64,000 nucleotides of DNA from Bradyrhizobium ontarionense (GTDB lineage: Bacteria; Pseudomonadota; Alphaproteobacteria; Rhizobiales; Xanthobacteraceae): positions 5,766,001-5,830,000 of the forward strand of contig NZ_CP088156.1 of NCBI RefSeq assembly GCF_021088345.1. The letters are read 5' to 3'. Shown one piece after another: positions 33,080 through 60,514 of the stretch (position 1 is the stretch's first letter; every line of letters starts with the position of its first letter). A program made the translations under genes and the position numbers. The notes under the pieces are model-generated. The model was not told where the DNA came from. It ran no database searches and worked only from the letters and a program-made list of their open reading frames with translations.

Positions 33080-33081
33080 CG

Positions 33082-33662: not shown

Positions 33663-33670
33663 GGCCCGCC

Positions 33671-36112: not shown

Positions 36113-36837
36113 TCCGGCCCGTCAGATGGGCGGCATCCGCCGCGGTGGTGCTCCTCGTCTCGGCCACGCCGTTGCAGGCGCAGCTGGTCGTGTTCGACCC
36201 CAACAATTATGCGCAGAACGTGCTGACCGCGGCGCGTGAGCTGCAGCAGATCAACAACCAGATCCTGTCGCTGCAGAACCAGGCGCAGATGCTGATCAAC
36301 CAGGCGAAGAACCTCGCCAGCCTGCCATATTCCTCGCTGGCGCAGCTGCAGCAGTCGATCCAGCGCACGCAGGATCTGCTCAAACAGGCGCAGCGGCTGG
36401 CCTACGACGTGCAGCAGATCGATCGCGCGTTTGCGACGACCTATGCGCCGGCGACCGGCAATGCGACCGCCCAGGATCTCGTCAACAATGCCCAGTCGCG
36501 CTGGCAGACCTCGGTGGCTGCGCTGCAGGATGCGCTGAAGGTGCAGGCAGGCGTTGTCGGGAATCTCGATGCGGTCAGGAGCCAGTCAGCGGCGCTGGTG
36601 ACGGCGAGCCAAGGCGCGACCGGTGCGCTGCAGGTGACCCAGGCCGGCAACCAGATTTTGGCATTGCAGGCGCAGCAGCTCGCAGACCTTACGGCTGCGG
36701 TGGCCGCACAGGGAAGGGCTCAGAGCCTGGATACGGCGCAGCGCGCGGCCGCCCAGGATCAGGGCCGCGAGCAGCTCCGGCGCTTCCTGGCGCCAGGGCA
36801 GGGCTACCTGCCTTCCAACGTGCAGATGTTTCACTGA
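36109..36837 (+). CDS. trbJ: TrbJ (VirB5-like) pilus-tip/periplasmic protein
   Basis: A 242-residue exported protein: signal peptide to TPLQAQ, then a Gln/Ala-rich helical body (ARELQQINNQILSLQNQAQMLINQAKNLA) typical of TrbJ. C-terminus PGQGYLPSNVQMFH. It starts inside the trbE stop and ends overlapping trbK. Confidence 0.93.
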   Translation: MIRPVRWAASAAVVLLVSATPLQAQLVVFDPNNYAQNVLTAARELQQINNQILSLQNQAQMLINQAKNLASLPYSSLAQLQQSIQRTQDLLKQAQRLAYDVQQIDRAFATTYAPATGNATAQDLVNNAQSRWQTSVAALQDALKVQAGVVGNLDAVRSQSAALVTASQGATGALQVTQAGNQILALQAQQLADLTAAVAAQGRAQSLDTAQRAAAQDQGREQLRRFLAPGQGYLPSNVQMFH

Positions 36838-37052
36838 TGGCAGAGCTTCGACGCTCATGGATGGTGGCGGCCGTGCTCGCCGCTGGCGCTTCGATCAGTC
36901 TCGCATCTTGCGTCATCCCGCTCCGGGGAGACGGCGGTGCGCACGGCGCGCCGAGACGGCACAACGCTGCGCTCGTGCAGGAGAACCAGCATCGCTCCTT
37001 TGATGAAGCGCAGCGGCTCTCTCTGCCACAGGTCGGGGAGAGCGGGCGATGA
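36837..37052 (+). CDS. trbK: TrbK-type entry-exclusion protein (short alternative form)
   Basis: A 71-residue protein overlapping trbJ at TGATG. A hydrophobic N-terminus ends in SLASC, a lipobox-like site, so it may be a lipoprotein; the remainder is polar. Position between trbJ and trbL fits the short TrbK variant that blocks redundant entry of the same element. Confidence 0.7.
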   Translation: MAELRRSWMVAAVLAAGASISLASCVIPLRGDGGAHGAPRRHNAALVQENQHRSFDEAQRLSLPQVGESGR

Positions 37053-38272
37053 CCGGGACGGGGGTGATCGACCAGTTTCTGGAGACCTTTACTCGAGCGA
37101 TCGATTCCGGCTTCGGCCTGCTCGGCGGCGAGGTCGGCTATCTCGCGACCACGCTGGTTGCGATCGATATCACCTTGGCGGCGCTGTTCTGGGCCTGGGC
37201 TGGTGAGGACGACGTCATCGCCCGCCTGGTGAAGAAGACCCTGTTCGTCGGCGTCTTCGCCTATCTCATCGGCAACTGGAATAGCCTTGCCCGCATTGTC
37301 TTCGAGAGCTTCGCTGCGCTCGGCCTGAAGGCGTCCGGCTCGACGCTTTCGACGGCCGAGTTCCTGCGGCCGGGCAAGATCGCGCAAGTCGGCCTCGATG
37401 CCGGGCGACCGCTGCTGCAGGCGATCTCGAGCCTGATGGGCTATGTCAGCTTCTTCGAGAACTTCGTCCAGATCGCGGTCCTCCTGTTTGCCTGGATGGT
37501 GGTGCTGCTCGCCTTCTTCATCCTGGCGATCCAGCTCTTCGTCACCCTGATCGAGTTCAAGCTGACGACGCTCGCTGGTTTCGTGCTGATCCCGTTCGGC
37601 CTATTCGGCAAGACCGCGTTTGCGGCCGAGCGCGTGCTCGGCAACGTGATGTCCTCGGGCATCAAGGTCCTGGTGCTCGCAGTCATCTCAGGGATCGGCT
37701 CGACTCTGTTCGCCCAGATCACGCAAGGAGCGGCGGGTGATCAGCCGACGATCGAGAGTGCCATGACCCTGGTGCTTGCGTCGCTGTCACTGCTTGGACT
37801 CGGGCTGTTCGGGCCCGGCATCGCCAATGGTCTCGTCTCCGGCGGACCGCAGCTTGGAGCAGGGAGCGCCGCCGGCACGTCACTGGCCACGGGTGGCCTC
37901 GTCGTTGCGGCGGCCGGTGCCGCAGCGGGGACCGTTGGACTCGCTGGCGGCGCCATCGCGGGCTCTGGCCGCGCCGCGACTGCTCTCCGCTCTGGAGCGT
38001 CCGCCTTGCGCGGAGGAAGTGCAGGCGGAGCTGAGGAGGCGGCGTCTGTTGCGAGCCCGCTCCGTCAGCGGACAGCAGCCGAGAGCGCCGGCACCGCCAT
38101 CTCTGGCCAGGCCGAGAGCCACGGCACGAGCGATACATCGCCGCGTTGGGCGCAGCGCGTGAAGGCCGCGCGCGCCATTCATCAGGGCGCGTCCACGACG
38201 ACGCAGGCCGTACGCAACGCCGAGCAAGGCGGACAGGGCGGCTCGGTCGATCTCTCCGATGGGAAATCCTGA
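37049..38272 (+). CDS. trbL: TrbL (VirB6-like) membrane channel protein
   Basis: A 407-residue polytopic protein with about six helices in residues 25-270 (for example YLATTLVAIDITLAALFWAWAG and LFAWMVVLLAFFILAIQLFVTLIEFKLTTLAGFVLIPFG). A Gly/Ala-rich segment and a polar, repetitive C-terminus follow. It is the VirB6-like inner-membrane core. Overlaps trbK by ATGA. Confidence 0.94.
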   Translation: MTGTGVIDQFLETFTRAIDSGFGLLGGEVGYLATTLVAIDITLAALFWAWAGEDDVIARLVKKTLFVGVFAYLIGNWNSLARIVFESFAALGLKASGSTLSTAEFLRPGKIAQVGLDAGRPLLQAISSLMGYVSFFENFVQIAVLLFAWMVVLLAFFILAIQLFVTLIEFKLTTLAGFVLIPFGLFGKTAFAAERVLGNVMSSGIKVLVLAVISGIGSTLFAQITQGAAGDQPTIESAMTLVLASLSLLGLGLFGPGIANGLVSGGPQLGAGSAAGTSLATGGLVVAAAGAAAGTVGLAGGAIAGSGRAATALRSGASALRGGSAGGAEEAASVASPLRQRTAAESAGTAISGQAESHGTSDTSPRWAQRVKAARAIHQGASTTTQAVRNAEQGGQGGSVDLSDGKS

Positions 38273-38273
38273 C

Positions 38274-38957
38274 ATGTTCAAGCGTCCCTCCGTCCACTAT
38301 GGCCGTACGCCCGAGCCGGTCACGCCCTATCAGAAAGCCGCGCAAGTGTGGGACGAGCGCATCGGCTCGGCGCGCGTGCAGGCCAAGAATTGGCGGCTGA
38401 TGGCGTTCGGTTGCCTGGGGCTCGCCGCGGGCTTTGCGTCCGCTTTGATCTGGCAGTCGACCCGCGGCACGGTGACGCCGTGGGTGGTCGAGGTCGGGCA
38501 TCTTGGCGAGGTCCAGCGCGTGGCGCCTGCCATCGCCGACTACAAGCCGACCGATCCGCAGGTCGCTTTTCATCTCGCCCGCTTCATCGAGGATGTCCGA
38601 GGCCTCCCGGCCGACGGCATCGTGCTGCGCCAGAACTGGCTGCGCGCTTATGATTTCACGACGGACCGTGGCGCGGCCGCGCTCAACGATTATGCCCGCT
38701 CCAACGATCCGTTCACGAGGCTCGGCAAGATCCAGGTCTCGGTCGAGGTCTCCAGCGTGATCCGCGCCTCGCCGAACAGCTTCCGGGTCGCCTGGGTCGA
38801 GCGGCGCTACGAGAACGGCGCGCAGAGCGCGACCGAGCGCTGGACCGCGATCCTGACCATCGTGCTCGCCATGCCCGACAATGCCGACCGCCTGCGCAAG
38901 AACCCGCTCGGCGTCTACGTCCACGCCATCAACTGGTCCAAGGAGCTGTCGCAATGA
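38274..38957 (+). CDS. trbF: TrbF (VirB8-like) assembly factor
   Basis: A 227-residue protein from ATG 38274 (in-frame ATG 38259 lies inside trbL). A cytoplasmic N-terminus (YGRTPEPVTPYQKAAQVWDERIGSARVQAKNW) is followed by one membrane helix and a VirB8-type periplasmic domain (NDPFTRLGKIQVSVEVSSVIRASPNSFRVAWVERRYENG). It nucleates channel assembly. Confidence 0.94.
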   Translation: MFKRPSVHYGRTPEPVTPYQKAAQVWDERIGSARVQAKNWRLMAFGCLGLAAGFASALIWQSTRGTVTPWVVEVGHLGEVQRVAPAIADYKPTDPQVAFHLARFIEDVRGLPADGIVLRQNWLRAYDFTTDRGAAALNDYARSNDPFTRLGKIQVSVEVSSVIRASPNSFRVAWVERRYENGAQSATERWTAILTIVLAMPDNADRLRKNPLGVYVHAINWSKELSQ

Positions 38958-39922
38958 CCAAGCCGCTTGCCGGATCGTCACGCGCGCGCTGGATGACTGC
39001 GGTCGCGATCATCATTCCGCTCACTGGTTGCGCGACGACCTCGCCGCCCAAGATCAGCTACGACAGCGATGTTCCCGCATTGCCGGCACCGCCTGCTGTC
39101 GTGGACGACAGGATCAAGCCTCTACATCTGCCGCCGCCGTGGAAAGTATCCCTGGGCGGCAAGAGCGACGCCAAGGAGGAGGCGGATCCGCTGGATCGGG
39201 TCGAGATGGCGAATGGCGCAGCACGGGTCGAACCCCGGAAGAAGGGGTATTTCAACGCGGCGCAGATCTACGCCTACAGTCCCGGCGCGCTCTACCAGGT
39301 CTATGCGGCGCCAGGGCAGATCACCGACATCATGCTCGAGGAGGGCGAGCAGCTCACGGGCTCCGGTCCGGTCTCCGCCGGTGACACGGTACGCTGGGTC
39401 GTTGGCGATACCGAGAGTGGTGCAGGCGACACGCGCCGCGTTCATATTCTGGTCAAGCCGAAGCGTGCGGCCATCGAGACCAATCTCGTCGTCAACACCG
39501 ACCGGCGAACCTATCTGATCGAGTTGCGGTCCCGTGAAAAGCCCTACATGCCAGCCGTCGCCTGGTACTATCCGCAGAATGCGGAGACCAGGGCACGGCA
39601 GGCGATGCTGAGGCCAGAGCTGCCCGATCCGGCGCAACGGCGTTTCCGATATCGGATCGAGGGCGACGATCCGCCTTGGAAGCCGGTCAATGCCTATGAC
39701 GACGGCCGTAAGGTCTATATCGAATTTGCCCGCGGAATCGTGCAAGGCGAGTTGCCGCCGTTGTTCATCGTTGGTGCTGACGGATCGCCCGAGCTCGTCA
39801 ACTACCGGACGTTCCGCAACGTGATCATCGTCGATCGGCTATTCGCCGCGGCTGAACTGCGGCTCGGTGGTGAGACGCAGCAGAAGGTCAGGATTGTCCG
39901 GACTGATGGAGCGTCGCGGTGA
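38954..39922 (+). CDS. trbG: TrbG (VirB9-like) outer-membrane complex protein
   Basis: A 322-residue protein, start overlapping the trbF stop. The signal ends in a lipobox-like LTGC, so it may be lipid-anchored. The body has VYAAPGQITDIMLEEGEQLTG and HILVKPKRAAIETNLVVNTDRRTYLIELRS, hallmarks of TrbG/VirB9. It forms the core complex with TrbI. Confidence 0.94.
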   Translation: MTKPLAGSSRARWMTAVAIIIPLTGCATTSPPKISYDSDVPALPAPPAVVDDRIKPLHLPPPWKVSLGGKSDAKEEADPLDRVEMANGAARVEPRKKGYFNAAQIYAYSPGALYQVYAAPGQITDIMLEEGEQLTGSGPVSAGDTVRWVVGDTESGAGDTRRVHILVKPKRAAIETNLVVNTDRRTYLIELRSREKPYMPAVAWYYPQNAETRARQAMLRPELPDPAQRRFRYRIEGDDPPWKPVNAYDDGRKVYIEFARGIVQGELPPLFIVGADGSPELVNYRTFRNVIIVDRLFAAAELRLGGETQQKVRIVRTDGASR

Positions 39923-41121
39923 CGGACGAGAACGAGACAGCGCCAGCTTCGCCCGGGACGCCCGCGATGGGCGAAGCGGGGCAACGCGCAACGGCGATGC
40001 GCCTGAAGGGAGATCCGCCTCCGATCACGCGTCTGTCGCGCAAGGTTCTGGCAAGCGGCAGCGCGCTGGCCCTGCTGTTGATTGCGGGGGCCGTGATCTG
40101 GGGTCTGAAGGCCAACAAGCCGCGTCAGCCCGGGACGGACGAGCTTTACAACACCGATCATCACGACGTGGCCGACGGCCTCTCGGGTTTGCCGCGTGAC
40201 TACGCCAGTCTGCCAAAAGATGTTCCCGCCTTGGGACCGCCGCTGCCCGGCGATCTCGGCCGGCCAATTCTTGCTGCGCAAGGGCAGGCACCGGCTGCGA
40301 TCCCGGATCAGGATCAACAGCGTCGCGAGCAGGAAACGGAAGCGGCACGCGTCAGCCGGCTGTTTGCAACGACCAATGTACGCGAGACGCAGCCGCCGGC
40401 GAATACGACGCAGGTTAATGATCGGGCGAGTGTTCCGTCTATGGATGATCCGTTTGCGCAGAACGGGCAGGATCGCAAGCTCGCCTTCGTCAATGCGCTG
40501 GTCGATCGCCGGACGACAAGTCCGGACCGCGTCACGCGGCAGGCTTCGCCTTACGTGATCCAGGCGGGCACAGTCATTCCCGGAGCTTTGATCACGGGAG
40601 TTCGCTCCGATCTGCCTGGGCAGATCACGGCGCAGGTCACCGAGAATATCTTCGATACTCCGTCGGGGCGTTTCCTACTAGTTCCACAGGGAGCAAGACT
40701 GATAGGGGTCTACGATAGCCAGGTGACGGCTGGGCAATCGCGTGTGCTTCTGGTCTGGACCAGGCTGATCATGCCTAATGGCCGCTCGATCGTCCTCGAA
40801 CGGCAGCAGGGGGCTGACGCCAGCGGCTACTCAGGTCTATCGGACGAGGTCGACAATCATTGGAAGCAACTGGTTGGTGCTGCGCTGCTGTCGACGTTGT
40901 TTTCAGTCGGGAGCGAGGTGAATGCAGGCGCAAACCCGAACACGAATAACGCCACAATCATTCAGGCGCTGCGCCAGGGCTTTGGCAACGCCATGAGTCA
41001 GACTGGGCAGCAACTCGTGCGGCAGCAGATGAACATTCAACCGACATTGACGGTGCGACCGGGATTTCCCGTGCGCGTCATTGTCAACCGGGATCTCGTG
41101 CTTGAGCCGTATCGCGGATAG
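39919..41121 (+). CDS. trbI: TrbI (VirB10-like) core-complex protein
   Basis: A 400-residue protein starting at GTG 39919 inside the trbG stop. One membrane helix (ALALLLIAGAVIWGLKA), a Pro/Gln-rich periplasmic stretch and the C-terminal TrbI domain (SPYVIQAGTVIPGALITGVRSDLPGQITAQVTENIFDTPSG; LLVPQGARLIGVYDSQV; VRVIVNRDLVLEPY) are present. It spans the envelope and links TrbG to the inner-membrane ATPases. Confidence 0.95.
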   Translation: MTDENETAPASPGTPAMGEAGQRATAMRLKGDPPPITRLSRKVLASGSALALLLIAGAVIWGLKANKPRQPGTDELYNTDHHDVADGLSGLPRDYASLPKDVPALGPPLPGDLGRPILAAQGQAPAAIPDQDQQRREQETEAARVSRLFATTNVRETQPPANTTQVNDRASVPSMDDPFAQNGQDRKLAFVNALVDRRTTSPDRVTRQASPYVIQAGTVIPGALITGVRSDLPGQITAQVTENIFDTPSGRFLLVPQGARLIGVYDSQVTAGQSRVLLVWTRLIMPNGRSIVLERQQGADASGYSGLSDEVDNHWKQLVGAALLSTLFSVGSEVNAGANPNTNNATIIQALRQGFGNAMSQTGQQLVRQQMNIQPTLTVRPGFPVRVIVNRDLVLEPYRG

Positions 41122-41641: not shown

Positions 41642-42433
41642 TCAAGCCGTGTCCGGCTTCTGCGCCGACACGATGAAGTAGTGCCAATACCAATATCCCA
41701 GGCTCAGCCGATCCTTGAACGACATCGTCTTGACTTGCTCCTTCCAGATGCTTTCCAATCCGCCGTGCCTGATGTTCTCGAAGCCGGCTTTTGTGAGCAT
41801 GGCACACAGCCGGTCGCGCCGTAGTCCATCCCGGAAGTACACTTGGGACAGGAATCGCTGGTGAGTGTCCTCGTCTGACTGGGGCTTCGTTCCGTCTAAT
41901 TTGTCGAGCCATCCGACGATCCGCCGCGCAATCCATGCAGAGGGGCGCTTCGGCGCAGTCACCCAGTCGCCGTCGACGATCACCACCCTGCCGCCCGGCC
42001 GGAGGACGCGCAGCCAATCGGCGAAGGCGGCATCGGGGTCGGGCAGGGTCCAGACGAGATGGCGTGACACCACGGCGTCGAAGCGTTGATCCGGCATCAT
42101 CGTATTTTCAGCATCGCCCAGATGGAAGCTGACCCGCTTGTGCGCCTTCACGTGTTTGGCCGCAGCTTTGGCGATCATCGGCTCGCACAGATCGATCGCC
42201 GTCACGGCGAGGCCCATCGACAGCAGAACTGCCGTCATCTCCCCGGTCCCCGATGCGAGCTCCAGAACCTCGGACACGTCGGAGCCTTCGAAGTGTCCCC
42301 GAAGCAACCTCGCCCAGGCATCCCGCTCCCCGATCGAGCGAATGCCGTGCCCCGGCGAATTGTCGAACGTCTCCGCACGGGCCGACCAATAGGATCTGAT
42401 CTCATCTTTGAGCGTGTAGTTCTTCAGGGACAT
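41642..42433 (-). CDS. class I SAM-dependent methyltransferase (last gene of nickel operon)
   Basis: A 263-residue protein from ATG 42433 (an upstream ATG at 42445 is in frame inside the ATPase gene). Residues 1-16 (MSLKNYTLKDEIRSYW) parallel the start of the methyltransferase at 47127. The SAM-binding motif is VLELASGTGEMTAVLLSMGLAVTAIDLCEPM, then HLGDAENTMMPDQRFDAVVSRHLVWTLPDP and LRPGGRVVIVDGD. The family resembles UbiE/MenG-type small-molecule methyltransferases. Seven bases separate it from the ATPase start-side partner, so it is in the operon. Substrate unknown; methylation of a metal chelator is my inference. Confidence 0.88.
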   Translation of the reverse strand: MSLKNYTLKDEIRSYWSARAETFDNSPGHGIRSIGERDAWARLLRGHFEGSDVSEVLELASGTGEMTAVLLSMGLAVTAIDLCEPMIAKAAAKHVKAHKRVSFHLGDAENTMMPDQRFDAVVSRHLVWTLPDPDAAFADWLRVLRPGGRVVIVDGDWVTAPKRPSAWIARRIVGWLDKLDGTKPQSDEDTHQRFLSQVYFRDGLRRDRLCAMLTKAGFENIRHGGLESIWKEQVKTMSFKDRLSLGYWYWHYFIVSAQKPDTA

Positions 42434-42438
42434 GACCC

Positions 42439-43902
42439 TCACCACATGGATCGAGGAGCTTGCGGGACGCCGAGCGGAGCCGGCCGATCGAGAGGATGAA
42501 TCGTGATCGACCGCTCGGTCATGCGGTCGATCAGGTCGGCGTCATGACTGACCAGCACGACCGCGATCTTCCGCTCGATCGCGACATCGGCGAGCAGATC
42601 CATGATTTTCCGTTGCGTCACGACGTCGAGCCGAGACGTGGGTTCGTCCGCGAAGATGAAGGCGGGAGAGCACAGCAGGGCTCTGACGAGCGAGATGCGC
42701 TGCAATTCGCCGCCCGAAACCTGGTGAGGCCGCCGCTCCAGAATGCTCGCCGCCACACCGACGCTGTGCAGCAGTTGGGAGAGCGAAGGCCCGCGGTCAT
42801 TCGCGTGATCGAGAGCATCGCGAACGGTCGCGCCGATCGTTCGCCATGGCGCGAAGGCCGCGCCCGGGTTTTGATAGATCTTCTGATATCGCCGGCTGTC
42901 CGACAGCGACCATGTCACCTGTCCCGCAGCCGGCACGGCGAGCTTCAGCAGCACGTTTCCCAATGTCGTCTTGCCGCAGCCGGATGGTCCGCAGAGACCA
43001 ACAATCTCTCCCGCACGGGCGGCTAGCGACAGGTCGGTGATCAGCGGACGACGATCGTCGCCGACGCTGATCGTGCCGCGATCCAGCTCCAGGATCGTCT
43101 GCGACGGAGCGTAGCGGCGGTGCGGCCAGCGCGACGGCTCCGCATTGACCAGATCGCGCAGATAGGCCGATCGCGGCGCCTGCAACACGTCCGCCGTCGG
43201 ACCTGTTTCGACCACGCCGCCGTCCCGCAGCACCGAGAGCGTGCCGCCGAGCATCCGGGCGAACGACAGATCATGGGTGACCGCGATGATCGAGCGGCCC
43301 TCCGAAGCCAGCACCAGCAGCGCTTCGGCGATTTCCTCTCTGCAGGCCGCGTCGAGCCCTTTGGTGGGTTCGTCGACCAGGATCAGGCGCGCCGGTGACG
43401 CCAGCGCCGTCGCAATACTGGCGCGCTGCGCCATTCCGCCGGAAATGTCACAGGGCAGCTTCGATCCATCCATGACGGGCGACAGGCCGAAGCGTTGCAG
43501 AAGTCCTTGCGCCACGAGGCCTGCACGCCTGCGGTCGGCTCCGTCGAACAGACGAGGCATATCGGCAATTTGCCGCTGCAGAGTCCGGGTCTGGGCCAGC
43601 GCGTTCCACGGCTCCTGTGGCAGCAGAAACAGATCGCGAGACCAGAGCGCACGGCGCTGGCGTCCGGTCAGGCGGGTCAGCTCGCGTCCGCCAAGAACGA
43701 CCGAGCCGGATGTTGCGAGTTCGGCCGGGAGCGTGCCGGCGATGGCCGCGCACACGATGCTCTTGCCGGCGCCTGTTTCACCCAGGATGACGTGAACTGC
43801 TCCCTCCCCCAGATGCAGGTCGAAGTTCGAGATCAGCGTCCTGCCGTCCCGATCGGTCACGCTCAACCGCTCGACGATCAGCAGGTCGGTCTCCCGGGTC
43901 AT
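42439..43902 (-). CDS. ABC transporter ATP-binding protein, two ATPase domains fused
   Basis: A 487-residue protein from ATG 43902, overlapping the permease stop. Domain 1 has Walker A GETGAGKS (about 41-48), signature ISGGMAQR and Walker B LILVDEPTKGLD; domain 2 has Walker A GPSGCGKT (about 310), signature VSGGELQR and Walker B IFADEPTSRLD. It is equivalent to NikD plus NikE or OppD plus OppF in one chain. Both catalytic sites look intact. It powers nickel/peptide-type import with the two permeases upstream. Confidence 0.93.
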   Translation of the reverse strand: MTRETDLLIVERLSVTDRDGRTLISNFDLHLGEGAVHVILGETGAGKSIVCAAIAGTLPAELATSGSVVLGGRELTRLTGRQRRALWSRDLFLLPQEPWNALAQTRTLQRQIADMPRLFDGADRRRAGLVAQGLLQRFGLSPVMDGSKLPCDISGGMAQRASIATALASPARLILVDEPTKGLDAACREEIAEALLVLASEGRSIIAVTHDLSFARMLGGTLSVLRDGGVVETGPTADVLQAPRSAYLRDLVNAEPSRWPHRRYAPSQTILELDRGTISVGDDRRPLITDLSLAARAGEIVGLCGPSGCGKTTLGNVLLKLAVPAAGQVTWSLSDSRRYQKIYQNPGAAFAPWRTIGATVRDALDHANDRGPSLSQLLHSVGVAASILERRPHQVSGGELQRISLVRALLCSPAFIFADEPTSRLDVVTQRKIMDLLADVAIERKIAVVLVSHDADLIDRMTERSITIHPLDRPAPLGVPQAPRSMW

Positions 43903-44672
43903 GCTTTGGCCCGATCGGCCAGGAGCAGCATGCCGCCGACGCTGGCCATGATGGCGGCCGATGGCGCGATCAGCAGATACGGTGCATCCGCGATGTAAGG
44001 CAGCGCCTCCGCGATCATGGTGCCCCATTCCGGCGCCGGCGGATTGAGTCCGAGCCCGAGAAAGCCGAGCGCAGCAACCTGAAGGATGGCCTGGCCGAAC
44101 AGCATCGCGCCGAGCGCGGCGAGCGGATCGGCAAGACGCGGCAGCACCAGCTTCAGCGCAATCGACAGACGCGGCAGCCTCACGAGCGCAGCGGCTTCGA
44201 CCGCCGTGCTCCGCATCGCGGATTCCGCAGCGAGCAGCGCGACCCGGCACGGCTCCGGCCACGACACCAGCGCGATATTGACCGCGATCGTGAGCGGCGT
44301 GGGTGGGAAGATGCCGGACAGAAGCAGGATGCCGACGAACGATGGAAAGGCCTGGAAGATGTCGAGCAGCCAGCGGATCGGACCCCGAAAGCGAGGCACG
44401 AGAGCTGCGGCGAGCGCCAGGCCGGTGCTCAAGACGAGAGCGATCGTCATGGAGGTCACAGCGATCAAAAGCGAGGTCCGCGCTCCGGTTGCGAGCCGCG
44501 CGGCGACGCTCCGGCCGAGGCCGTCCGTGCCGAGCAGGGAGTCTAAGGAAGGTGCCTGCAACGCGCTTGCCAGATCCAGCTCGTTCGGCGACGGCGTGAT
44601 CGCCGGCCCGATCGCGGCCAGCGTCACGATCGCCAGGATCAGCATGAGCCCGACCAGCTGCAGGCGCGTCAT
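43899..44672 (-). CDS. ABC transporter permease (NikC/DppC type)
   Basis: A 257-residue inner-membrane permease, about six helices. The ATPase-contact loop (EAAALVRLPRLSIALKLVLPRLADPL) is in the usual place, and the N-terminal segment GTDGLGRSVAARLATGARTSLLIA is typical of NikC/DppC/OppC. Its start overlaps the other permease (ATGA). Confidence 0.92.
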   Translation of the reverse strand: MTRLQLVGLMLILAIVTLAAIGPAITPSPNELDLASALQAPSLDSLLGTDGLGRSVAARLATGARTSLLIAVTSMTIALVLSTGLALAAALVPRFRGPIRWLLDIFQAFPSFVGILLLSGIFPPTPLTIAVNIALVSWPEPCRVALLAAESAMRSTAVEAAALVRLPRLSIALKLVLPRLADPLAALGAMLFGQAILQVAALGFLGLGLNPPAPEWGTMIAEALPYIADAPYLLIAPSAAIMASVGGMLLLADRAKA

Positions 44673-45607
44673 GTTCTTGTCCTGCGGTCGAACAGCCGAA
44701 CACTGAGCTCGGCGAGCGTGTTGCAGACGACGATCAGCATGCCCACCACGAGGGCGCAGGCCTGCATCACCGCGACATCCCGAGCCAGCACCGCATCCAC
44801 CAGCAATTTGCCCAGGCCCGGAAAGGCGAACAACTGCTCGACGACGGCCGTGCCCTTGAGGTGGCCCGCGAGGATCCCAAAGACGAAAGCGATGATCGGC
44901 GTCGATGACATCGGCAGTGCATGCCCGACCATCACGGCGGTTTCACCGAGCCCCTTCATGCGGGCGAAGCCGATGCTGGGATGCTGCAACGCGTCGGCGA
45001 TGCAGACCGCGGTAAAGAGCGCGATGCGGACCATTCCTCGCAGAGCGAGGGTTGCCGCCGGTAGAACGAGAAAGGCGGCGCCGCCATATCCGGCGGATGG
45101 CAGCACGTTCAATTTGATCGAGACGATCAGGATGAGGAGAAGGCCGATCACGTAGGTCGGCGTCCCCGACACCAACGCGCCCGACAGTTTGGCGAGCGTC
45201 AGCCCGGAAGACGTCCGGCCGAGCCACAGGCCGAGGGGGACGCCGAATGCCACGGAGATAGGGACGGACAGCGCCACCAGCAGCAGCGTGCGTCGCAGCG
45301 GTGCGTCCAGCATCGAAGCGACCGGCTGATGGGTGACCACGGATCGGCCGAGATCGCCGCGCGCGAGCGCCCCGAGCCATTTGCCGAAACGCACGACGGC
45401 CGGCTGATCCAGGCCCAGCTCGCGTCGAACCGCCGCCTCGACATCCGGAGTGACGTTGTCCACGTCGTACCGCGCGGCGGCCACCTGAAAGGCGATGTCG
45501 CCCGGAAGATATTCGACCATCGCGAAACTGAGCGACACCAGAACCAGCGTCACCCCGAACATTCGGAGCAGCAACCGGGCGACCATTCGTGCCGCGAGGT
45601 CGATCAT
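44669..45607 (-). CDS. ABC transporter permease (NikB/DppB type)
   Basis: A 312-residue permease. ATG 45607 overlaps the stop of the binding protein, so the long upstream frame is ignored. The N-terminal helix (LLLRMFGVTLVLVSLSFAMVEYLPGD), the LGLDQPAVVRFGKWLGALARGDLGRS block and the C-terminal LFAFPGLGKLLVDAVLARDVAVMQA are hallmarks of NikB/DppB/OppB. Confidence 0.93.
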   Translation of the reverse strand: MIDLAARMVARLLLRMFGVTLVLVSLSFAMVEYLPGDIAFQVAAARYDVDNVTPDVEAAVRRELGLDQPAVVRFGKWLGALARGDLGRSVVTHQPVASMLDAPLRRTLLLVALSVPISVAFGVPLGLWLGRTSSGLTLAKLSGALVSGTPTYVIGLLLILIVSIKLNVLPSAGYGGAAFLVLPAATLALRGMVRIALFTAVCIADALQHPSIGFARMKGLGETAVMVGHALPMSSTPIIAFVFGILAGHLKGTAVVEQLFAFPGLGKLLVDAVLARDVAVMQACALVVGMLIVVCNTLAELSVRLFDRRTRT

Positions 45608-47127
45608 GCCCATTGCATCCGGCTGATCCGGAAGCTGGCGTCGAACGGATCGCTGATCACGCCTGTGACCTGCCTGGTGTGGACGAGCACATTTTCGTAC
45701 CAGGAGTGGGGGATGATCGGCAACTCGTCGAGCAGGATGCGTGTGATGGTCTGTCGTGCCACTGCGCGAACCGCCTCGGAGGAGGTGGACTCGTAGCCGA
45801 GCAGCGCATCGTCGAGCTCGTGCGAGACCCATCCCACCGCGCCCCAGCCCCGGGCGGACGATGTCGAGAGGAAATCATCCGACAGCGTCGCGACCGGATC
45901 GGGCACGGCAAAATAGGATCGGGTCATCAGTCCGAGTTGGAGGCTGCCATGACGCGACTTCTGCAGAATCCACTCCGGCATCACCGTCTCGATCGTGACA
46001 TCGACGCCGATCTTGCGCCATTGTGCCTGCAGGACGGTCGCCAAAGGCGCCAATTCGGGGCGCATCGCATAGGTGCTGAGCGTGAATGCAAGGCGTTGCC
46101 CGCCGCGCCGGCGCGGGCCATCGGCCTGGCGCTCCCATCCGGCGTCCTGCAGCAACGCTTCGGCCTCTGCAAGATTGTACGTCAGCGTTGCGACGTCGGG
46201 CGATGGCCAGTCGGACAGGACCGGCGGCATCAGCCCCGTCGCTGCGGCGCCAGCGCTGCGCAGCACTGTCCGTGCGGCGCCTGCGCGGTCGAGCGCCAGC
46301 GACAATGCCCGGCGGACGCGGATGTCGGCCAGCCTCGCGTCAGCGGAATTGACCATCACGTAACGCAGGCGCGGGGCCGGAGTTCTGACGACGCTCAGAC
46401 TGGAATTGCGCGCCAACCGCTCGGCAGCGATCGGCGAGACGACATAGGCGATCTCCACGTCTTGGGATTCCACCATGCGGGCGCGCGTGTCGGCGTCCGT
46501 CACCGCCGAGTAACGCACGCGCGTGATGGACGCGGGCGAGACCTGGCGCCTCGCGGACGACAATTCGAGGGTGTTGTTGTCGACCAGAGTGTCGATCCTG
46601 AACGGCCCCGTGCCGACCGGAATCCCCACCTGACCCGCCGCCGAATAGGATGACGGAGCCAGGATGATCGAAGAGGCCGCAGCCAACAATGCAGGCAGAA
46701 CCGCCAAGGGCTTGCCAAGACGGACGACGACGGTGTCGTCCTGTGCGGCGATCGATACGATCGGGGCGCGATACAATGCCGATGCCGGGGTCTGCCTCGC
46801 ACGACTGATGCTGGACATCACGATTTCGGACGACACCATCGTTCCATCGTGAAACCGCGCGGACGGATCGAGCGAAAACCGCCACGTCAATCCGTCGTCC
46901 GACGTCTCGCTCGCGATCGCCAGGCAGGGCTCGATCCGGCCGAGGGGACCGACCTTGAACAGACCCTCACCGACCTCGAGGTTCTGAACGAGATAAGGAG
47001 AGACGGTTGCGTCCTGGCCGGCCAGACCGGTGGCTCCGACGACGCGAAGGGGGCGGTCGCTGGCACGCGCGGCCGCGATCGTCACAGATGCAGGAATCGC
47101 AGCGAGAACATGTCGGCGCGTCAGCAT
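45604..47127 (-). CDS. extracytoplasmic solute-binding protein (NikA/OppA family)
   Basis: A 507-residue periplasmic protein. The N-terminus MLTRRHVLAAIPASVTIAAARA is a Tat-type signal, as in E. coli family relatives that bind metals. The body shows SBP family 5 features (LTWRFSLDPSARFHDGTMVSSEIV; VGTGPFRIDTLVDNNTLEL; DIRVRRALSLALDRAG). The operator found upstream of the operon points to nickel or a nickel chelate as ligand; sequence alone cannot separate this from peptide binding. Confidence 0.9.
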   Translation of the reverse strand: MLTRRHVLAAIPASVTIAAARASDRPLRVVGATGLAGQDATVSPYLVQNLEVGEGLFKVGPLGRIEPCLAIASETSDDGLTWRFSLDPSARFHDGTMVSSEIVMSSISRARQTPASALYRAPIVSIAAQDDTVVVRLGKPLAVLPALLAAASSIILAPSSYSAAGQVGIPVGTGPFRIDTLVDNNTLELSSARRQVSPASITRVRYSAVTDADTRARMVESQDVEIAYVVSPIAAERLARNSSLSVVRTPAPRLRYVMVNSADARLADIRVRRALSLALDRAGAARTVLRSAGAAATGLMPPVLSDWPSPDVATLTYNLAEAEALLQDAGWERQADGPRRRGGQRLAFTLSTYAMRPELAPLATVLQAQWRKIGVDVTIETVMPEWILQKSRHGSLQLGLMTRSYFAVPDPVATLSDDFLSTSSARGWGAVGWVSHELDDALLGYESTSSEAVRAVARQTITRILLDELPIIPHSWYENVLVHTRQVTGVISDPFDASFRISRMQWA

Positions 47128-47981
47128 CAGCGCGATCGTTCGACAGGAGGCGCAGCGCGGTCGCCCTGCCGCTGAACAGCCGAACGAGCGAACATGTCGG
47201 GCATCAGCGGCTTCGCGCAGGACAGAATGAAGCTGTCCGACAGACCAACCCTCAGACGCGTCGCCAGCCTGGCTCCGCGGCGCTGAGCCTTTCGAACGGG
47301 TTCGAGGTCCTCGATCCGGAAATCGCCGAAGCCGGCCTCAGCCAGCATCTGCTGGAGCGCGAGTGGCTTCAGGCCGCGGCTGAAATAGATCTGTCTCATA
47401 ATGGCTTCATGCGCCGCCCAGTCGATAACCGGCGCCTCCGTCCCCTCCCATCGCTCGATCCATTGCGCGAGCTTTCGGCGCCAGCGCTTGAGCAGGGAGA
47501 TCTCCGCGAAGTCGCCGTCGATGATAACGATCCGGCCGCCGGGGCGGACGACCCGGTACCAATCGCGAAAAGCCGCCATCGGGTCGACCAACGTCCAGAC
47601 CAGATGCCGCATCACGATGGCGTCATGGCTCTCGTCGTCTTCGCGCGTGTCCTCCGCATCACCCAGAAACAGCGACAGATCAGAGGCTCCGGCGTGTTTC
47701 GCCTTCGCCTTCTGAAGCATCGCTTCGGTCAGGTCCAGTCCAGTGACGCGGAAGCCGAGCGCGAGCAGCACCGAGGTGATCTCGCCGGTGCCGAAGGCGA
47801 GCTCCAGCACGTCGGCCCCGGCAGGCTGAGCGACATGGCTTCCGATCAGATCGAGCCATGCGGCCTTCTCGCCCGGGGCCTGCATGCCGTGCAGCGGCGA
47901 CTGATCGAAGGTCTCGGCCCTGCGACTCCAATACTCGCGGATCTCCTCCTTCAACGCGAAGTTGGGTCGATACTGAGACAC
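47127..47981 (-). CDS. class I SAM-dependent methyltransferase (second gene of nickel operon)
   Basis: A 284-residue protein. GTG 47981 is chosen for its GGAGAAAGCC ribosome site and because the resulting N-terminus (SQYRPNFALKEEIREYWSRRAETFDQSP) lines up with the paralogue at 41642. The SAM motif is VLELAFGTGEITSVLLALGFRVTGLDLTEAML, followed by LFLGDAEDTREDDESHDAIVMRHLVWTL and VRPGGRIVIIDGDF. The C-terminus adds an Arg-rich tail. The stop overlaps the binding-protein start (TGATG). Substrate unknown. Confidence 0.88.
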   Translation of the reverse strand: MSQYRPNFALKEEIREYWSRRAETFDQSPLHGMQAPGEKAAWLDLIGSHVAQPAGADVLELAFGTGEITSVLLALGFRVTGLDLTEAMLQKAKAKHAGASDLSLFLGDAEDTREDDESHDAIVMRHLVWTLVDPMAAFRDWYRVVRPGGRIVIIDGDFAEISLLKRWRRKLAQWIERWEGTEAPVIDWAAHEAIMRQIYFSRGLKPLALQQMLAEAGFGDFRIEDLEPVRKAQRRGARLATRLRVGLSDSFILSCAKPLMPDMFARSAVQRQGDRAAPPVERSR

Positions 47982-48028
47982 GGCTTTCTCCACGGAAACG
48001 ATCGGGACATGGCGTCGCGAGCGCGTCC

Positions 48029-50263
48029 TCAGAATGTGCTCTTCACGGTGAGCCACACCGTGCGCGGCTGGCCGGGATAGACGTTGGTCGCAGAGCGGAC
48101 CTGGTCGTAATAGACGGTGTTGGCGATGTTGTAGACGTTCAGCGAGATCTTGGTCGTCTTGTTGAGGGTGTAGTAGGCCAGCGCGTCGAATTTGACGTAG
48201 CCCGGCACGGTGAATGTGCCGGTCGCGTCGCCCGCCCGCGAGCCCGCGGCCGAGACGCCGCCGCCCAGTCCGAGCCCTGCGAGTGGTCCCGACTGCCATT
48301 CGTACACCGCCATCATCGAGCCGCTGTTCAGCGGCACGTTCGGGAAACGCGCGCCGACTGGCAGCGTCACGTCCCTGGTGATCCTGGCGTCCGTGTAGGC
48401 GTAGCCGCCGATCAGGCGCAGTTCGCGCGTGACGTTACCGACGACGTTGATGTCGAAGCCAGTGCTGGTGACCTGCCCTGCGGTGGTATTGAAGCCGGGA
48501 TTGGCCGGGTCCGCGGTCAGCACGTTGTCCTTGACGATCTTGAACCCGGCCGCGGTCACGCTGAACCTGTTGTCGAGCAGATCCAACTTGACGCCGGCTT
48601 CGTAGCCGATGCCGGTTTCGGGCGCGAACGCCTGTCCGGATGCCGTTCCCACAAAGCCTGTATCGGAATCGAGATTCGGCCGGAATGATTTTGCAACGTC
48701 GGCAAACAGCGTGAAGTTCGGCACGATCTCGTAGGTTACGCCGGCCTTCGGAATCACCGGACTCGGGTTCTGGGTGATGCGCTGGCCGGTGATCAACTGC
48801 CGCGCATCCTGATCGTAATTGTCGTAGCGCACGCCGACCAACGTCTTGAGCTGCGAGGTCCATTCGGTCTGCAGCGACGAATACAGTCCCAGGGTGTCGA
48901 CACGATCCTTGAACAGCGACTTGACGGTGGCAGGCGGCTTGGCCTGACCATAGACCGGATTGAACACGTTGATGCTGTAGGGGAAGGCCGCAGTGTCGGA
49001 CCGACGAAAATCTTCAAGATCGGTATAGTGTTCGTACTCGATCCCGGCCAAAAGCGTATTCTTGAAACCGCCAATGCCGAAATGGCCGACGGTCTCCAAT
49101 TGGGAATTGGACGACGCCCAACTGTAGTCCCGGAACGTATTGCGTCGCGTCAGGACGCCGGCGGCATTGACCGAGACAGGTTCGGCCGTCCAGCCGTACA
49201 GACTTCCCTCCTTGTACTGAGTAGCGAACCTGACGAGCCAATCCTTGTTGATGTCGTGCTCGACCCGAAAACTCCCAAGTGCATACTGATTGCGGAGCGC
49301 GCCATCGTTGGGCTCGCCGAGGAAGCGGGATATCGGCAACGCGCCGACATTCTTGTTGACTGCCACCAGACCACGGTCGAACGGGCGATCGTCCTTCAGA
49401 TATTCGCCCTCGAACGTCACCCGCCAATCGGCGGACGGCGAATAGGACACTACGGGAGCGACGAAAACACGCTTGCTATCGTTGAAATCGCGGAAGCTGT
49501 CGCGCTGATCGAACGCCGCGTTGATGCGGCCGAGCCACGTCTTGTCGTCCGACAGCGCCTGGTTGCTATCGATGGTGGCGCGGCGCATGCCGTAGGAGCC
49601 GACCGTGCCCGTCAATGTGGTGAAGTTTCGGTCGAGCGGCTGCTTGATGATGACATTGTAGAAGCCGCTCGGATCGCTGCGACCATACAGCGCGCCGGAC
49701 GGCCCCATCATCACTTCGACGCGCTCGACATTGGCGGCGTCGTCCGGCTCGTAGCGGCGAACCGCCGAGATACCGTTCTTGGCGGCGTTGCGGGTCGGAA
49801 AGCCGCGGATGTTGAACTCGTAGTTGTTGAGGCCGCCGAAATTGTTGCCTCGGGTCACACCGCCGACGACGTCCAGCGCGCCGGCGGCGGTGGTCGCATT
49901 CCGATCGTCGAGCACCTGCCGGGGCACGACCACGATTTCCTGCGGGATATCTTTCAGCGGAGTATCGGTCTTCGTGCCGCTGGTGGTGCGGGTGGCGCGA
50001 TAGCCGTCGACGGGACCATTGCCACGTTCGACCGCCGCCGGGCGCACATCGGAAACGGTCGGATTGGGCGCGGCGGACGGAGCGTTTTGACGCGGCGCTC
50101 GTGCCGTGCGCCGTTGGGTCGCCCTGGTCGACTGGGCAGAGCGTTGCGATTGGAGCTTCTGACGCGCCACGGGCGCATCGACGGTCACCTCCGGCAGACT
50201 CGTCTGCGCCGACGCGCCGCCCGCGCAACAGGTGCATAGAGCGGCAAGACAAACCGAAGCCAT
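48029..50263 (-). CDS. TonB-dependent siderophore-type receptor of the nickel operon
   Basis: About 744 residues from ATG 50263, whose product begins with a signal peptide (ASVCLAALCTCCAGGASA); the frame is open further upstream but without a good start. The probable TonB box is SLPEVTVDAP. The plug is of the siderophore-receptor type (PLKDIPQEIVVVPRQVLDDRNATTAAGALDVVGGVTRG; GPSGALYGRSDPSGFYNVI), and the barrel ends in RTVWLTVKSTF with the terminal Phe expected of porins. It is the first gene of the operon, 48 bases before the methyltransferase. Siderophore-type plug and NikR control suggest import of a nickel chelate. Confidence 0.92.
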   Translation of the reverse strand: MASVCLAALCTCCAGGASAQTSLPEVTVDAPVARQKLQSQRSAQSTRATQRRTARAPRQNAPSAAPNPTVSDVRPAAVERGNGPVDGYRATRTTSGTKTDTPLKDIPQEIVVVPRQVLDDRNATTAAGALDVVGGVTRGNNFGGLNNYEFNIRGFPTRNAAKNGISAVRRYEPDDAANVERVEVMMGPSGALYGRSDPSGFYNVIIKQPLDRNFTTLTGTVGSYGMRRATIDSNQALSDDKTWLGRINAAFDQRDSFRDFNDSKRVFVAPVVSYSPSADWRVTFEGEYLKDDRPFDRGLVAVNKNVGALPISRFLGEPNDGALRNQYALGSFRVEHDINKDWLVRFATQYKEGSLYGWTAEPVSVNAAGVLTRRNTFRDYSWASSNSQLETVGHFGIGGFKNTLLAGIEYEHYTDLEDFRRSDTAAFPYSINVFNPVYGQAKPPATVKSLFKDRVDTLGLYSSLQTEWTSQLKTLVGVRYDNYDQDARQLITGQRITQNPSPVIPKAGVTYEIVPNFTLFADVAKSFRPNLDSDTGFVGTASGQAFAPETGIGYEAGVKLDLLDNRFSVTAAGFKIVKDNVLTADPANPGFNTTAGQVTSTGFDINVVGNVTRELRLIGGYAYTDARITRDVTLPVGARFPNVPLNSGSMMAVYEWQSGPLAGLGLGGGVSAAGSRAGDATGTFTVPGYVKFDALAYYTLNKTTKISLNVYNIANTVYYDQVRSATNVYPGQPRTVWLTVKSTF

Positions 50264-50421
50264 TCCGACCGAGCGCAGCGGTCGCCCGAATCCAGTGCAT
50301 AGCGAAGGCTCAGCCTGCCCGAAACGGCTGCTCGCCGGATGCAAAGATCCACGACCACGCGATGCGCCACGTCCTACGATACGCCCCTCAGCTCCGCTCA
50401 ACTCACACCCCCATTCCAAAT

Positions 50422-50449
50422 GTATGACGTTTTTAACAAAAGATCATAC
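50422..50449. promoter_or_regulatory. NikR operator
   Basis: GTATGA (50422-50427), 16 intervening bases, TCATAC (50444-50449): an exact match, spacing included, to the established NikR operator. It lies about 160 bases before the receptor start of the seven-gene operon. The flanks are AT-rich, as in a promoter. NikR with Ni2+ represses nickel uptake genes. Confidence 0.9.
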
Positions 50450-53245: not shown

Positions 53246-55327
53246 CTATTGCGCCCCATAACTTGCCACCCGGATGCCGCCGAACACGCCAAGGCCCGGA
53301 GCCAGGAAGCCGGTCGGATTCTGGTAGTGCCGGTTGAAGAGGTTATCGATGCGGCCGAACAGCTTGATCTGGTCGGATAGCGCGTAGTCGCCGCGCAGGT
53401 TCACGAGGGTGTAGCCGGACGCGACGAGGCCTGAGGTCATGCCGTCGCGGCTGACGTCGAGCCAGTCGCTGACATGCAGCAGCGTGGCCGAGACGGTCAA
53501 CGCATCAAGCGGCGTCCAGACCGCCGTTGCGCTCCATTTCTCCTTCGGTCGTCGCAGCAGCTGCAGACCCGTCGTCGCGTCGACCGCGCGGGTGAACGTG
53601 TAGTCCGCACGCAGCGACAGCCGGTCCGTCAGCCTCGCCGCCACGAAGCTCTCGGTGCCCTCGGTGGTGGCGAGCCCGACATTGGCGTAGGAGGTGAACG
53701 TGTCGTTGAAGTTGATCAGGTTCGTGATGCTGTTGTGGAAGTAGGTCGTACCAAACCGGAAGCGTTCTTCGAACAGCGGCTGCTCGAATCCCGCATCATA
53801 GCCGGTGCTCTGCTCCGGCTTGAGGTTCGGGTTGGCGAAGAAGTTGAAGGCCGGGAAGTCCTGGTAGAGCTGGCTCAAGGTCGGCGCCTTGAAACCGGTG
53901 CCGTAGCTCGCCTTCAGCTTGGTCTCGGTGAACGGCAGGATGACGGCCGGCGCAATCCGATAGGTGCCGTGGCCGCCGAATTGATCGTTGACGTCGTTGC
54001 GCAGGCTCGCGACCACGAACACGCGCTTTGCGAACTCGCTCTGCAGCTCGATGAAACCGGCCTTGTTGCCGTTCTCGGCCGCAAGACCCGTCGTCCGCAG
54101 CCGGTCGGTCTGCTGCTCGAGACCGACGATGAAGTTGTTGTGCGGAGCGAGCTCGGTGACCGCGTGCCAGTCGTATTTGATACGCTCACCGGTCGAGATC
54201 GCGGCAATCGGATCGCCCGCCGTGAGGTCGGACGTCCGGTTGTTCACATAGTTGACGCCGAAATAGTTCCTGATCCGGCCGTCGAGCAGCGACCACACCG
54301 CTTCTTGGCGCGTCGCGAACTGGTGCACGGTATGGGTGCTCTGGGCCGCGTTCGGGACGCTGGGAAAGCCGCCATCGCCAGTGAACAGCAGGGTGGCGTC
54401 GGTGTAGCGGATCACCGAATTCAGCGTCCAGGCCTCGTTGAGGTCGATCCCGAATTTGGTCGAGGCGGTAACGTTGTCGTAGGCGTTGCCGATCGCCTTC
54501 TGTCCTGCCGGCAGCAGCTGCTGCGGCGTTACGGGGATGTCGCCGGCATGGAGATGCGCGACATTGACCGCGTAGTTCACATTGTCCTGCGAGCCGCTGA
54601 CGCCGGCCGACTGGTTGAAGGTCTGGAACGAGCCGGCCTCGATCGAGGCCGTCGCTCGCGCCGGGCCATCGCCCTTGCGCGTGACGACCGAGATCACGCC
54701 GCCGATCGCATCGGAGCCATAGAGGCCGCTCTGTGGGCCCCTGAGCACCTCGAACTGCTGGATGTCCGAGGTCAGCAAATGGGCGAAGTCGAAGGCGCCA
54801 TTGGCATTGGTGACGTCACCGACGTCGATGCCGTCGATCAGGATCGTGGTGTGATTGGAGTTGGTCCCGCGGGTGAAGACCGAGCTCTGGCCACCAGGGC
54901 CGCCGGTCTGCACGACGTTCAATCCGGGAATGGTGGCGAGGATGTCTGGCACGCTGCGTAACTGCTGCGTGGCGATGTCCTTCTCCGTGACCACCGAAAT
55001 CGCGTTCGCCACGTTGGCGGCCGGCGTCACGATGCCGGTCGGGCTGACGACGAGTTGTGCGTTAGCCGGTGCCGACGTGGCAACTGGGGCCTGTGAGGGC
55101 ATAGGCTGTGGCGGCCGTACCCGCGGCGTCTGCGTCGCGCGCTGCACGACGGGTTTTGGTCGTGGCGTCACCCGCGGCGGGTCGACCTCGACGGGCGGCA
55201 GCAGGTTGGGAGAGGCGGACTGCTGGGCATTCGCCGGGGCTGCCCCGAAAGCGGCGAGAGCGAAAAGAGCGGTCGACGACAACAGGCCGGCGCGTTCGCG
55301 CCGGGCGATAGACAGAAAAGAGAACAC
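53246..55327 (-). CDS. btuB: BtuB-like TonB-dependent cobalamin receptor
   Basis: A 693-residue receptor started at GTG 55327 (AGGG six bases before), giving a signal peptide (SIARRERAGLLSSTALFALAAFGAAPANA). The probable TonB box is NLLPPVEVDPP, then a Pro-rich linker. The plug (ISVVTEKDIATQQLRSVPDILATIPGLNVVQTGG; TTILIDGIDVGDVT; FEVLRGPQSGLYGSDAIGGVISVVT) is of the BtuB type, and the barrel ends in FGGIRVASYGAQ. Cobalamin as substrate is supported by the riboswitch 128 bases upstream. Confidence 0.93.
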   Translation of the reverse strand: MFSFLSIARRERAGLLSSTALFALAAFGAAPANAQQSASPNLLPPVEVDPPRVTPRPKPVVQRATQTPRVRPPQPMPSQAPVATSAPANAQLVVSPTGIVTPAANVANAISVVTEKDIATQQLRSVPDILATIPGLNVVQTGGPGGQSSVFTRGTNSNHTTILIDGIDVGDVTNANGAFDFAHLLTSDIQQFEVLRGPQSGLYGSDAIGGVISVVTRKGDGPARATASIEAGSFQTFNQSAGVSGSQDNVNYAVNVAHLHAGDIPVTPQQLLPAGQKAIGNAYDNVTASTKFGIDLNEAWTLNSVIRYTDATLLFTGDGGFPSVPNAAQSTHTVHQFATRQEAVWSLLDGRIRNYFGVNYVNNRTSDLTAGDPIAAISTGERIKYDWHAVTELAPHNNFIVGLEQQTDRLRTTGLAAENGNKAGFIELQSEFAKRVFVVASLRNDVNDQFGGHGTYRIAPAVILPFTETKLKASYGTGFKAPTLSQLYQDFPAFNFFANPNLKPEQSTGYDAGFEQPLFEERFRFGTTYFHNSITNLINFNDTFTSYANVGLATTEGTESFVAARLTDRLSLRADYTFTRAVDATTGLQLLRRPKEKWSATAVWTPLDALTVSATLLHVSDWLDVSRDGMTSGLVASGYTLVNLRGDYALSDQIKLFGRIDNLFNRHYQNPTGFLAPGLGVFGGIRVASYGAQ

Positions 55328-55454
55328 GAGGGACCCTGGGCATGACGTCAGTGGCACGTCACCGCGAACGAGGTCCCACACCAGATAATACTATCCGGCG
55401 CAGAAACGATGCCAATAAACGCCCCGACCGGCATCTTCGCGTGTGACCACGGCT

Positions 55455-57451: not shown

Positions 57452-57480
57452 CGTGGCTTCCCTTCTTATTCTTGCTGTTC

Positions 57481-60384
<2,904 letters not shown>

Positions 60385-60514
60385 CAAGGGCCCCGTGATG
60401 CGCAGTTTGCATTTGGACGGGGCAGACAGGGGCGCAGCAGCGCACCGCGCGGCGAAACGCCGAACGATGCCGTGCCAGCGACCGCCGGGACACCCCGCCC
60501 GTGGACGTTCAGGT

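What the first reader, a model, noticed from the sequence alone, without database searches (positions are those of the whole stretch)
41642..50449. Seven-gene putative nickel-chelate import operon under an exact NikR operator
GTATGA-N16-TCATAC at 50422-50449 matches the established NikR operator base for base and in spacing. A chance 12-base match with fixed spacing is expected about 0.004 times in 64 kb. Downstream on the minus strand lie receptor, methyltransferase, NikA/OppA-type binding protein, two permeases, fused ATPase and methyltransferase, joined by overlaps. Known nickel systems (NikABCDE; NikR-controlled TonB receptors) do not include this set with two methyltransferases as far as I know. 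The siderophore-type plug suggests a chelated form of nickel.
Basis: partly seen in the sequence, partly recalled or inferred. Interest (0 to 1): 0.85.

Follow-up and report, generated by a model that had tools for sequence, protein, structure and literature searches.

The report
NikR-controlled nickel-chelate importer with methyltransferases
A soil bacterium carries a seven-gene operon, apparently switched by the nickel sensor NikR, that pairs an iron-siderophore-style import chain with two methylating enzymes whose relatives accompany other metal-chelate importers, hinting at an undescribed chemical step in how cells take up or release scavenged metal.

Summary
GTATGA-N16-TCATAC lies exactly at 50422-50449, the only exact copy in the window, above seven tightly packed minus-strand genes. 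It behaves as a NikR operator: the complete genome has one nikR with its own exact box upstream; the exact pattern occurs in 71 of 98 Bradyrhizobium genomes, the reversed control in 1; 28 of 30 boxes examined sit by nikR, a related TonB receptor or a NicO nickel permease; and a box is kept at the same genes in Rhodopseudomonas and a Beijerinckiaceae MAG. As a family, the binding protein is nearer to NikA/CntA than to peptide binders, but has no histidine at NikA His416. Nickel-chelate import is well supported by sequence, untested at the bench. The new part is the methyltransferase family: in 34 of 36 sampled occurrences it adjoins an ABC importer, mostly siderophore-type. One subtype has an upstream cobalamin riboswitch in 11 of 11 loci scanned. 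Archaeal relatives adjoin Nik/Opp-type transporters. I read it as a ligand-handling enzyme shared by nickel, cobalt and perhaps zinc chelate importers. Its reaction is unknown. New variant of a known kind.

The parts
50422..50449 (.). NikR operator GTATGA-N16-TCATAC, about 160 bases upstream of the probable receptor start
   Evidence: in the window/R. palustris alignment 16 contiguous bases (GTATGATCTTTTGTTA, read on the minus strand) and the TCATAC half are identical
48029..50263 (-). TonB-dependent siderophore-type outer-membrane receptor (open frame extends to 50419; start unsure)
47127..47981 (-). MT1, class I SAM-dependent methyltransferase, family with N-terminal signature LKEEIREYW..RAETFD.SP.HG
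45604..47127 (-). extracytoplasmic solute-binding protein, family 5, NikA/CntA branch
44669..45613 (-). NikB/OppB-type permease
43899..44672 (-). NikC/OppC-type permease
42439..43902 (-). ATPase with two fused ABC domains, NikD-like then NikE-like
41642..42433 (-). MT2, paralogue of MT1 (47% identity); alternative GTG start at 42445

Best explanation
A nickel-scavenging operon. When cytoplasmic nickel is scarce, NikR leaves the box at 50422-50449 and the seven genes are transcribed. The TonB receptor brings a nickel-chelate across the outer membrane, the NikA/CntA-type protein captures it in the periplasm, and two permeases with the fused ATPase import the chelate intact. MT1 and MT2 then act on the ligand in the cytoplasm: methylating a donor group lowers its affinity, so nickel is released and not re-bound. 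This would do for Ni(II) what reductases and esterases do for ferric siderophores (that comparison is from general knowledge). Shown by sequence: box, gene set, nikR gene, conservation of box and genes, methyltransferase fold, association of the methyltransferase family with importers. Inferred: nickel as the metal (about 0.85), intact-chelate import (about 0.75), MT action on the ligand in either direction (about 0.6), release rather than synthesis (about 0.4).
For: NikR control; box kept in R. palustris XCP and the Beijerinckiaceae MAG (alignment with R. palustris). Nickel demand: two strong urease matches, 190 and 162 bits, and a full-length [NiFe] hydrogenase match, 776 bits. Chelate import: siderophore-type receptor; in the MAG the receptor-MT1 pair is followed by ExbB-ExbD-TonB. 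Nickel branch: the best 12 PDB sequences for the SBP-family profile are labelled nickel-binding, and a relative of the transporter unit (33% SBP) lies beside nikR in another genome (L139). MT as ligand enzyme: adjoins an importer in 34 of 36 sampled cases; its tree follows transporter type, 7 label changes against a shuffled mean of 24.0, 0 of 200 as low (labels mine, near-copies contribute); no nicotianamine-synthase-like or opine-dehydrogenase match among the seven proteins; found also in archaea.
Against: No binding, transcription or uptake data. The SBP is below every NCBIfam equivalog cut-off listed (TIGR02294 NikA 129 of 393 bits) and has no histidine at NikA His416. The 12 nickel-labelled best sequences are about four proteins, seven of them E. 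coli NikA variants. With the single sequence instead of the profile, YliB ranks second, and YliB also heads the fold comparison, tied with nickel proteins, so a peptide ligand is not excluded. Of 33 non-own SBP relatives in two samples only 1 has an MT beside it, so this transporter unit works without the MT elsewhere. L011, L083 and L084 have an MT without an importer nearby. The MT fold matches many unrelated small-molecule methyltransferases, so no substrate can be read from it. No sigma-70-like promoter was found by the simple scan.
Confidence: 0.55

Rival explanations
1. The methyltransferases make the nickelophore: MT1 and MT2 methylate (or transfer another group of SAM to) a common metabolite to form a secreted nickel ligand, which the rest of the operon takes back.
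For: In L059 an EamA-family transporter gene, a possible exporter, lies inside an MT-SBP-EamA-permease-permease-ATPase cluster. L079 has a 29% tblastn match to such a gene beside its MT, though the frame called there matches no Pfam family. Known metallophore operons couple synthesis, export and uptake (Zrm/Cnt system, passages of PMC11481552).
Against: No exporter lies among the seven genes here. Two clusters with the same EamA gene lack the MT (L150, L151). I recognised no further ligand-synthesis gene beside the MT, but most neighbours were not named.
Confidence: 0.25
2. The cargo is a nickel or cobalt tetrapyrrole or corrinoid-like molecule, and the methyltransferases modify it after uptake.
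For: Siderophore-type ABC clusters of one subtype have an upstream cobalamin riboswitch in 11 of 11 loci scanned; in Cereibacter the cluster lies by cbiM and cobyric-acid synthase genes.
Against: The riboswitch also fits plain cobalt supply (passages of PMC7689651). The other subtype had none in 16 of 16 clusters scanned. The transporter here is of the Nik/Opp class, whose solved relatives bind small chelates and peptides.
Confidence: 0.1
3. An ordinary peptide or opine importer that happens to be nickel-regulated.
For: SBP family 5 includes peptide and opine binders; YliB ranks second by single-sequence search and first, tied, by fold.
Against: A siderophore-type TonB receptor and an exact conserved NikR box are not expected for this; the family profile ranks nickel-labelled proteins first.
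Confidence: 0.1

Closest known systems
NikABCDE with NikR (Escherichia coli)
   Same: Same transporter class; same operator; nickel-branch binding protein
   Different: Here with an outer-membrane receptor and two methyltransferases; NikD- and NikE-like halves fused; all subunits below NCBIfam equivalog cut-offs; no histidine at NikA His416
Cnt/Zrm opine-metallophore systems (staphylopine, pseudopaline)
   Same: Metal-metallophore import through an Opp/Nik-class transporter (Cnt of Staphylococcus, recalled) or through a TonB receptor with an exporter (Zrm, passages of PMC11481552)
   Different: No nicotianamine-synthase-like or opine-dehydrogenase match among the seven proteins; the methyltransferases match UbiE-type models best, below cut-off
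NikR-box TonB receptors and NicO permeases of Bradyrhizobium
   Same: Same operator in the same genus; this genome also has one such receptor, divergent from nikR (L009)
   Different: Different receptor lineage; no match to the operon's MT genes or transporter at the 30 sites examined (3-kb loci), apart from a 22% SBP match in L177
PA2911-PA2914 of Pseudomonas aeruginosa (pyochelin-cobalt import; PMC11481552, passages seen)
   Same: Metal-controlled receptor plus ABC importer for a metal-metallophore complex
   Different: Described there as similar to siderophore and B12 importers, not Nik/Opp; Zur-controlled; the word methyltransferase occurs 0 times in that paper. I did not compare its sequences

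Membership tests
NikR regulon | NikR regulator encoded in the genome | tested here: met
   one NikR_C match, 95.1 bits; TIGR02793 182.6 bits, cut-off 175.45
NikR regulon | operator GTATGA-N16-TCATAC upstream, conserved in relatives | tested here: met
   control
NikR regulon | nickel-dependent NikR binding and repression | not testable with these tools
   needs DNA-binding and transcript assays
NikABCDE nickel transporter (NCBIfam equivalogs) | scores over the curated cut-offs of NikA, NikB, NikC, NikD, NikE | tested here: not met
   129.1/393, 180/447, 137.6/358.45, 233.3/318.7, 228.3/332.55 bits
NikABCDE nickel transporter (NCBIfam equivalogs) | His416 of NikA, which the title of entry 3qim calls essential for nickel uptake in E. 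coli | tested here: not met
   profile alignment to NikA (position counted from the printed numbering) and 37 relatives: no conserved histidine there; 7 of 37 have one some ten columns further on
Opine-metallophore (Cnt) system | nicotianamine-synthase-like and opine-dehydrogenase genes in the operon | tested here: not met
   no such family listed for the seven proteins (NCBIfam lists capped at 25 rows for MT2 and the ATPase)
TonB-dependent siderophore receptor (TIGR01783) | score over subfamily cut-off | tested here: met
   296.5 bits, cut-off 223.5
UbiE/MenG methyltransferase (TIGR01934) | score over the subfamily cut-off | tested here: not met
   MT2 67.4 and MT1 54.4 bits, cut-off 158.35
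Class I SAM-dependent methyltransferase | methyltransferase domain and fold | tested here: met

The most novel reading that the evidence does not exclude
This methyltransferase family is a general metal-chelate release (or maturation) enzyme, an ancient partner of nickel, cobalt and perhaps zinc chelate importers of two unrelated ABC classes in bacteria and archaea. It would add methylation to reduction and hydrolysis as a further way of getting a metal out of its imported ligand, and would explain how cells handle chelates of metals that are not released by reduction. One concrete guess is ring-nitrogen methylation of a thiazolidine-type nickel ligand, the kind named in the title of S. aureus NikA entry 4xkr.
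Probability: 0.25. Interest if true: 0.85.

Novelty: new variant of a known kind. Interest (0 to 1): 0.6.

Why it matters
How nickel crosses the outer membrane, and how an imported nickel chelate gives up its metal, are to my knowledge largely open. This operon offers a complete chain under one operator, so the ligand can be sought with the binding protein as bait. If the methyltransferase family really handles the ligand, the same kind of enzyme would serve nickel, cobalt and perhaps zinc uptake in a range of Alphaproteobacteria, Sinorhizobium meliloti among them, and in some archaea, and one assay could test a step shared by all of them.

Tried and rejected
Rejected: that the box is chance (reversed control in 1 of 98 genomes). 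Rejected: that the operon typifies Bradyrhizobium (1 of 195 at E <= 1e-60). Rejected: that relatives of the transporter generally carry the MT; of 33 non-own SBP matches in the two samples only L059 does. EamA as proof of ligand synthesis: the same gene occurs without the MT (L150, L151), so I give it little weight. In L059 the CobW match is only a 46-position piece. Zur-type boxes upstream of the siderophore-type clusters, with a recalled motif: L057 and L058 match (1 and 0 mismatches); the others have 3-7, like the shuffles (3-6), so zinc control is a guess from neighbours (CobW, FUR-family and ABC-3 genes beside one cluster). Substrate from MT structure: too many mixed matches. NikR boxes at urea carboxylase in 8 other Bradyrhizobium genomes: none with 2 or fewer mismatches in the 1.5-kb flanks. 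The box at genome 6224482 (L008) lies between metallo-hydrolase-like and MATE genes; I saw no link to nickel and count it as probably chance.

Seen as passages only: PMC2667541 (its urea carboxylase passage is about yeast), PMC7689651, PMC11481552. One search (S. meliloti locus tags) gave 3 papers, listing only. Recalled and from no call: how ferric siderophores are released; the E. coli NikR operator (also in the finding); that YliB is the glutathione binder GsiB; the labels FecBCD, MT1 and MT2, FecB_12 and FecB_13 are mine.

Full report
WHAT IS THERE. The window is bases 5766001-5830000 of one complete 8.44-Mb chromosome. GTATGA-N16-TCATAC lies at 50422-50449 with no mismatch. On the minus strand below it lie a TonB-dependent receptor (open frame 48029-50419), methyltransferase MT1 (47127-47981), an SBP family 5 binding protein (45604-47127), NikB-like (44669-45613) and NikC-like (43899-44672) permeases, one ATPase with two ABC domains (42439-43902) and methyltransferase MT2 (41642-42433). 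The probable receptor start is the ATG at 50263: two of three relatives read begin near there, and the R. palustris frame aligns through it; my caller and the protein database chose later starts.

IS THE BOX REAL. The genome has five exact boxes; 0.12 would be expected at the window's GC content. One lies about 30 bases upstream of the genome's single nikR gene, between it and a divergent TonB receptor. Across 98 genomes of the genus the exact pattern occurs in 71 and the reversed control in 1; this genome has the most. Of 30 box loci (one each from 30 other genomes), 23 show nikR or a relative of the nikR-linked receptor by tblastn (one, L169, only at 28% identity) and five more a NicO nickel permease, so 28 of 30; L165 and L175 showed nothing. 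The same operon in Rhodopseudomonas palustris XCP (L010; proteins 88-93% identical) has an exact box in the same place. A Beijerinckiaceae MAG (L014; proteins 50-72% identical) has the genes as two divergent sets, receptor-MT1 and SBP-permeases-ATPase-MT2, with an exact box between them. In the alignment with L010, 16 contiguous bases and the far half-site are identical while the flanks vary.

THE METHYLTRANSFERASES. MT1 and MT2 (47% identity) share an N-terminal signature with their relatives. A profile of the family found 33 further genes in 31 of 396 other genomes of the order sample, and 3 more in the phylum sample (8 of 397 other genomes, 5 of them already counted). Of these 36, 34 lie beside an ABC importer: 33 siderophore-type (called FecBCD here), 1 Nik/Opp-type (L059); the two exceptions are a truncated copy (L083) and a weak match (L084). 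A named Pseudoroseomonas copy (L011) also lacks one. The FecBCD partners fall into two kinds. In the kind called FecB_13, 11 of 11 loci scanned have a cobalamin riboswitch: nine directly upstream of the binding-protein gene, one about 0.7 kb upstream (L058), one ahead of co-oriented ribonucleotide-reductase genes nrdA and nrdB that precede it (L057). They include Sinorhizobium meliloti pSymB (L093) and Cereibacter azotoformans, where a pseudoazurin gene and cobalt and cobalamin genes lie alongside. In the other kind (FecB_12), 0 of 16 clusters scanned have one. Archaeal relatives lie beside Nik/Opp-type genes in two Methanosarcinales MAGs (27-31% identity to MT1) and on a Haloterrigena plasmid. 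On a tree of 55 family members the transporter label, assigned by me, changes 7 times against a shuffled mean of 24.0 (near-copies contribute, several long branches are unsure, and the FecB_12-type L012 falls among FecB_13 rows). MT1 and MT2 of the three NikR-box gene sets form two separate supported clades, so the doubling is older than the split of these lineages.

READING. A NikR box in one branch and a cobalamin riboswitch in another point to a job on the ligand rather than on one metal. Position inside or beside importers, without a ligand-synthesis gene recognised in this operon, favours an action on what is imported. I therefore prefer ligand methylation for release, with synthesis as the main rival. 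Neither is shown.

COMPARISON. It works like a nickel-chelate importer but fails the tested membership features of NikABCDE (curated cut-offs, His416) and of the opine-metallophore systems. The literature searches listed under Tried and rejected did not turn it up.

NEIGHBOURHOOD. Cobalamin riboswitches lie at 55441-55658 (ahead of a second receptor) and 60504-60719 (ahead of nrdAB). About 25 kb further, urea carboxylase and allophanate hydrolase, a nickel-free urea route, start about 50 bases from an exact NikR box, while the genome also has two strong urease matches. The region looks like a store of metal-sparing genes.

Noticed in passing
L006 (genome 5830001-5848000), 6052-11560: Urea carboxylase and allophanate hydrolase genes begin about 50 bases from an exact NikR box, suggesting that a nickel-free urea route is switched on when nickel is short and urease cannot be filled. 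No such box (up to 2 mismatches) at 8 other Bradyrhizobium urea carboxylases.
   Followed up: partly
L007 (genome 5936000-5952000), 7048-11750: Another exact NikR box between a TonB receptor and a divergent ABC-2-type transporter pair; a possible further nickel-regulated unit.
   Followed up: no
L009 (genome 7459000-7475000), 4905-8570: nikR divergent from a TonB receptor, which is followed by a methyltransferase-domain gene that BLAST does not link to MT1/MT2.
   Followed up: no
window 55441-55658 and 60504-60719: Two cobalamin riboswitches, ahead of a TonB receptor gene (53246-55327) and of ribonucleotide reductase nrdAB (56291-60291).
   Followed up: partly
L089 and L090: A pseudoazurin gene sits between the siderophore-type ATPase gene and the methyltransferase gene in Roseomonas and Cereibacter clusters; its role there is unexplained.
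   Followed up: no
L057 and L058: A palindrome like GTTATGTTATAACATAAC, resembling a Zur box as recalled, lies 70-85 bases upstream of binding-protein genes whose loci also have an upstream cobalamin riboswitch.
   Followed up: partly
L015 50-16990: A Methanosarcinaceae MAG has three family members among three Nik/Opp-type transporter sets, the first cut by the locus end.
   Followed up: no
window 32114-41121: Conjugation genes (T2SSE ATPase, TraG P-loop, TrbL, TrbI matches) end about 500 bases from MT2, so the operon abuts a probable mobile element.
   Followed up: no
window 901-1221 and 8427-8747: Two 107-codon frames about 7.5 kb apart whose first 40 printed residues differ at one position.
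   Followed up: no
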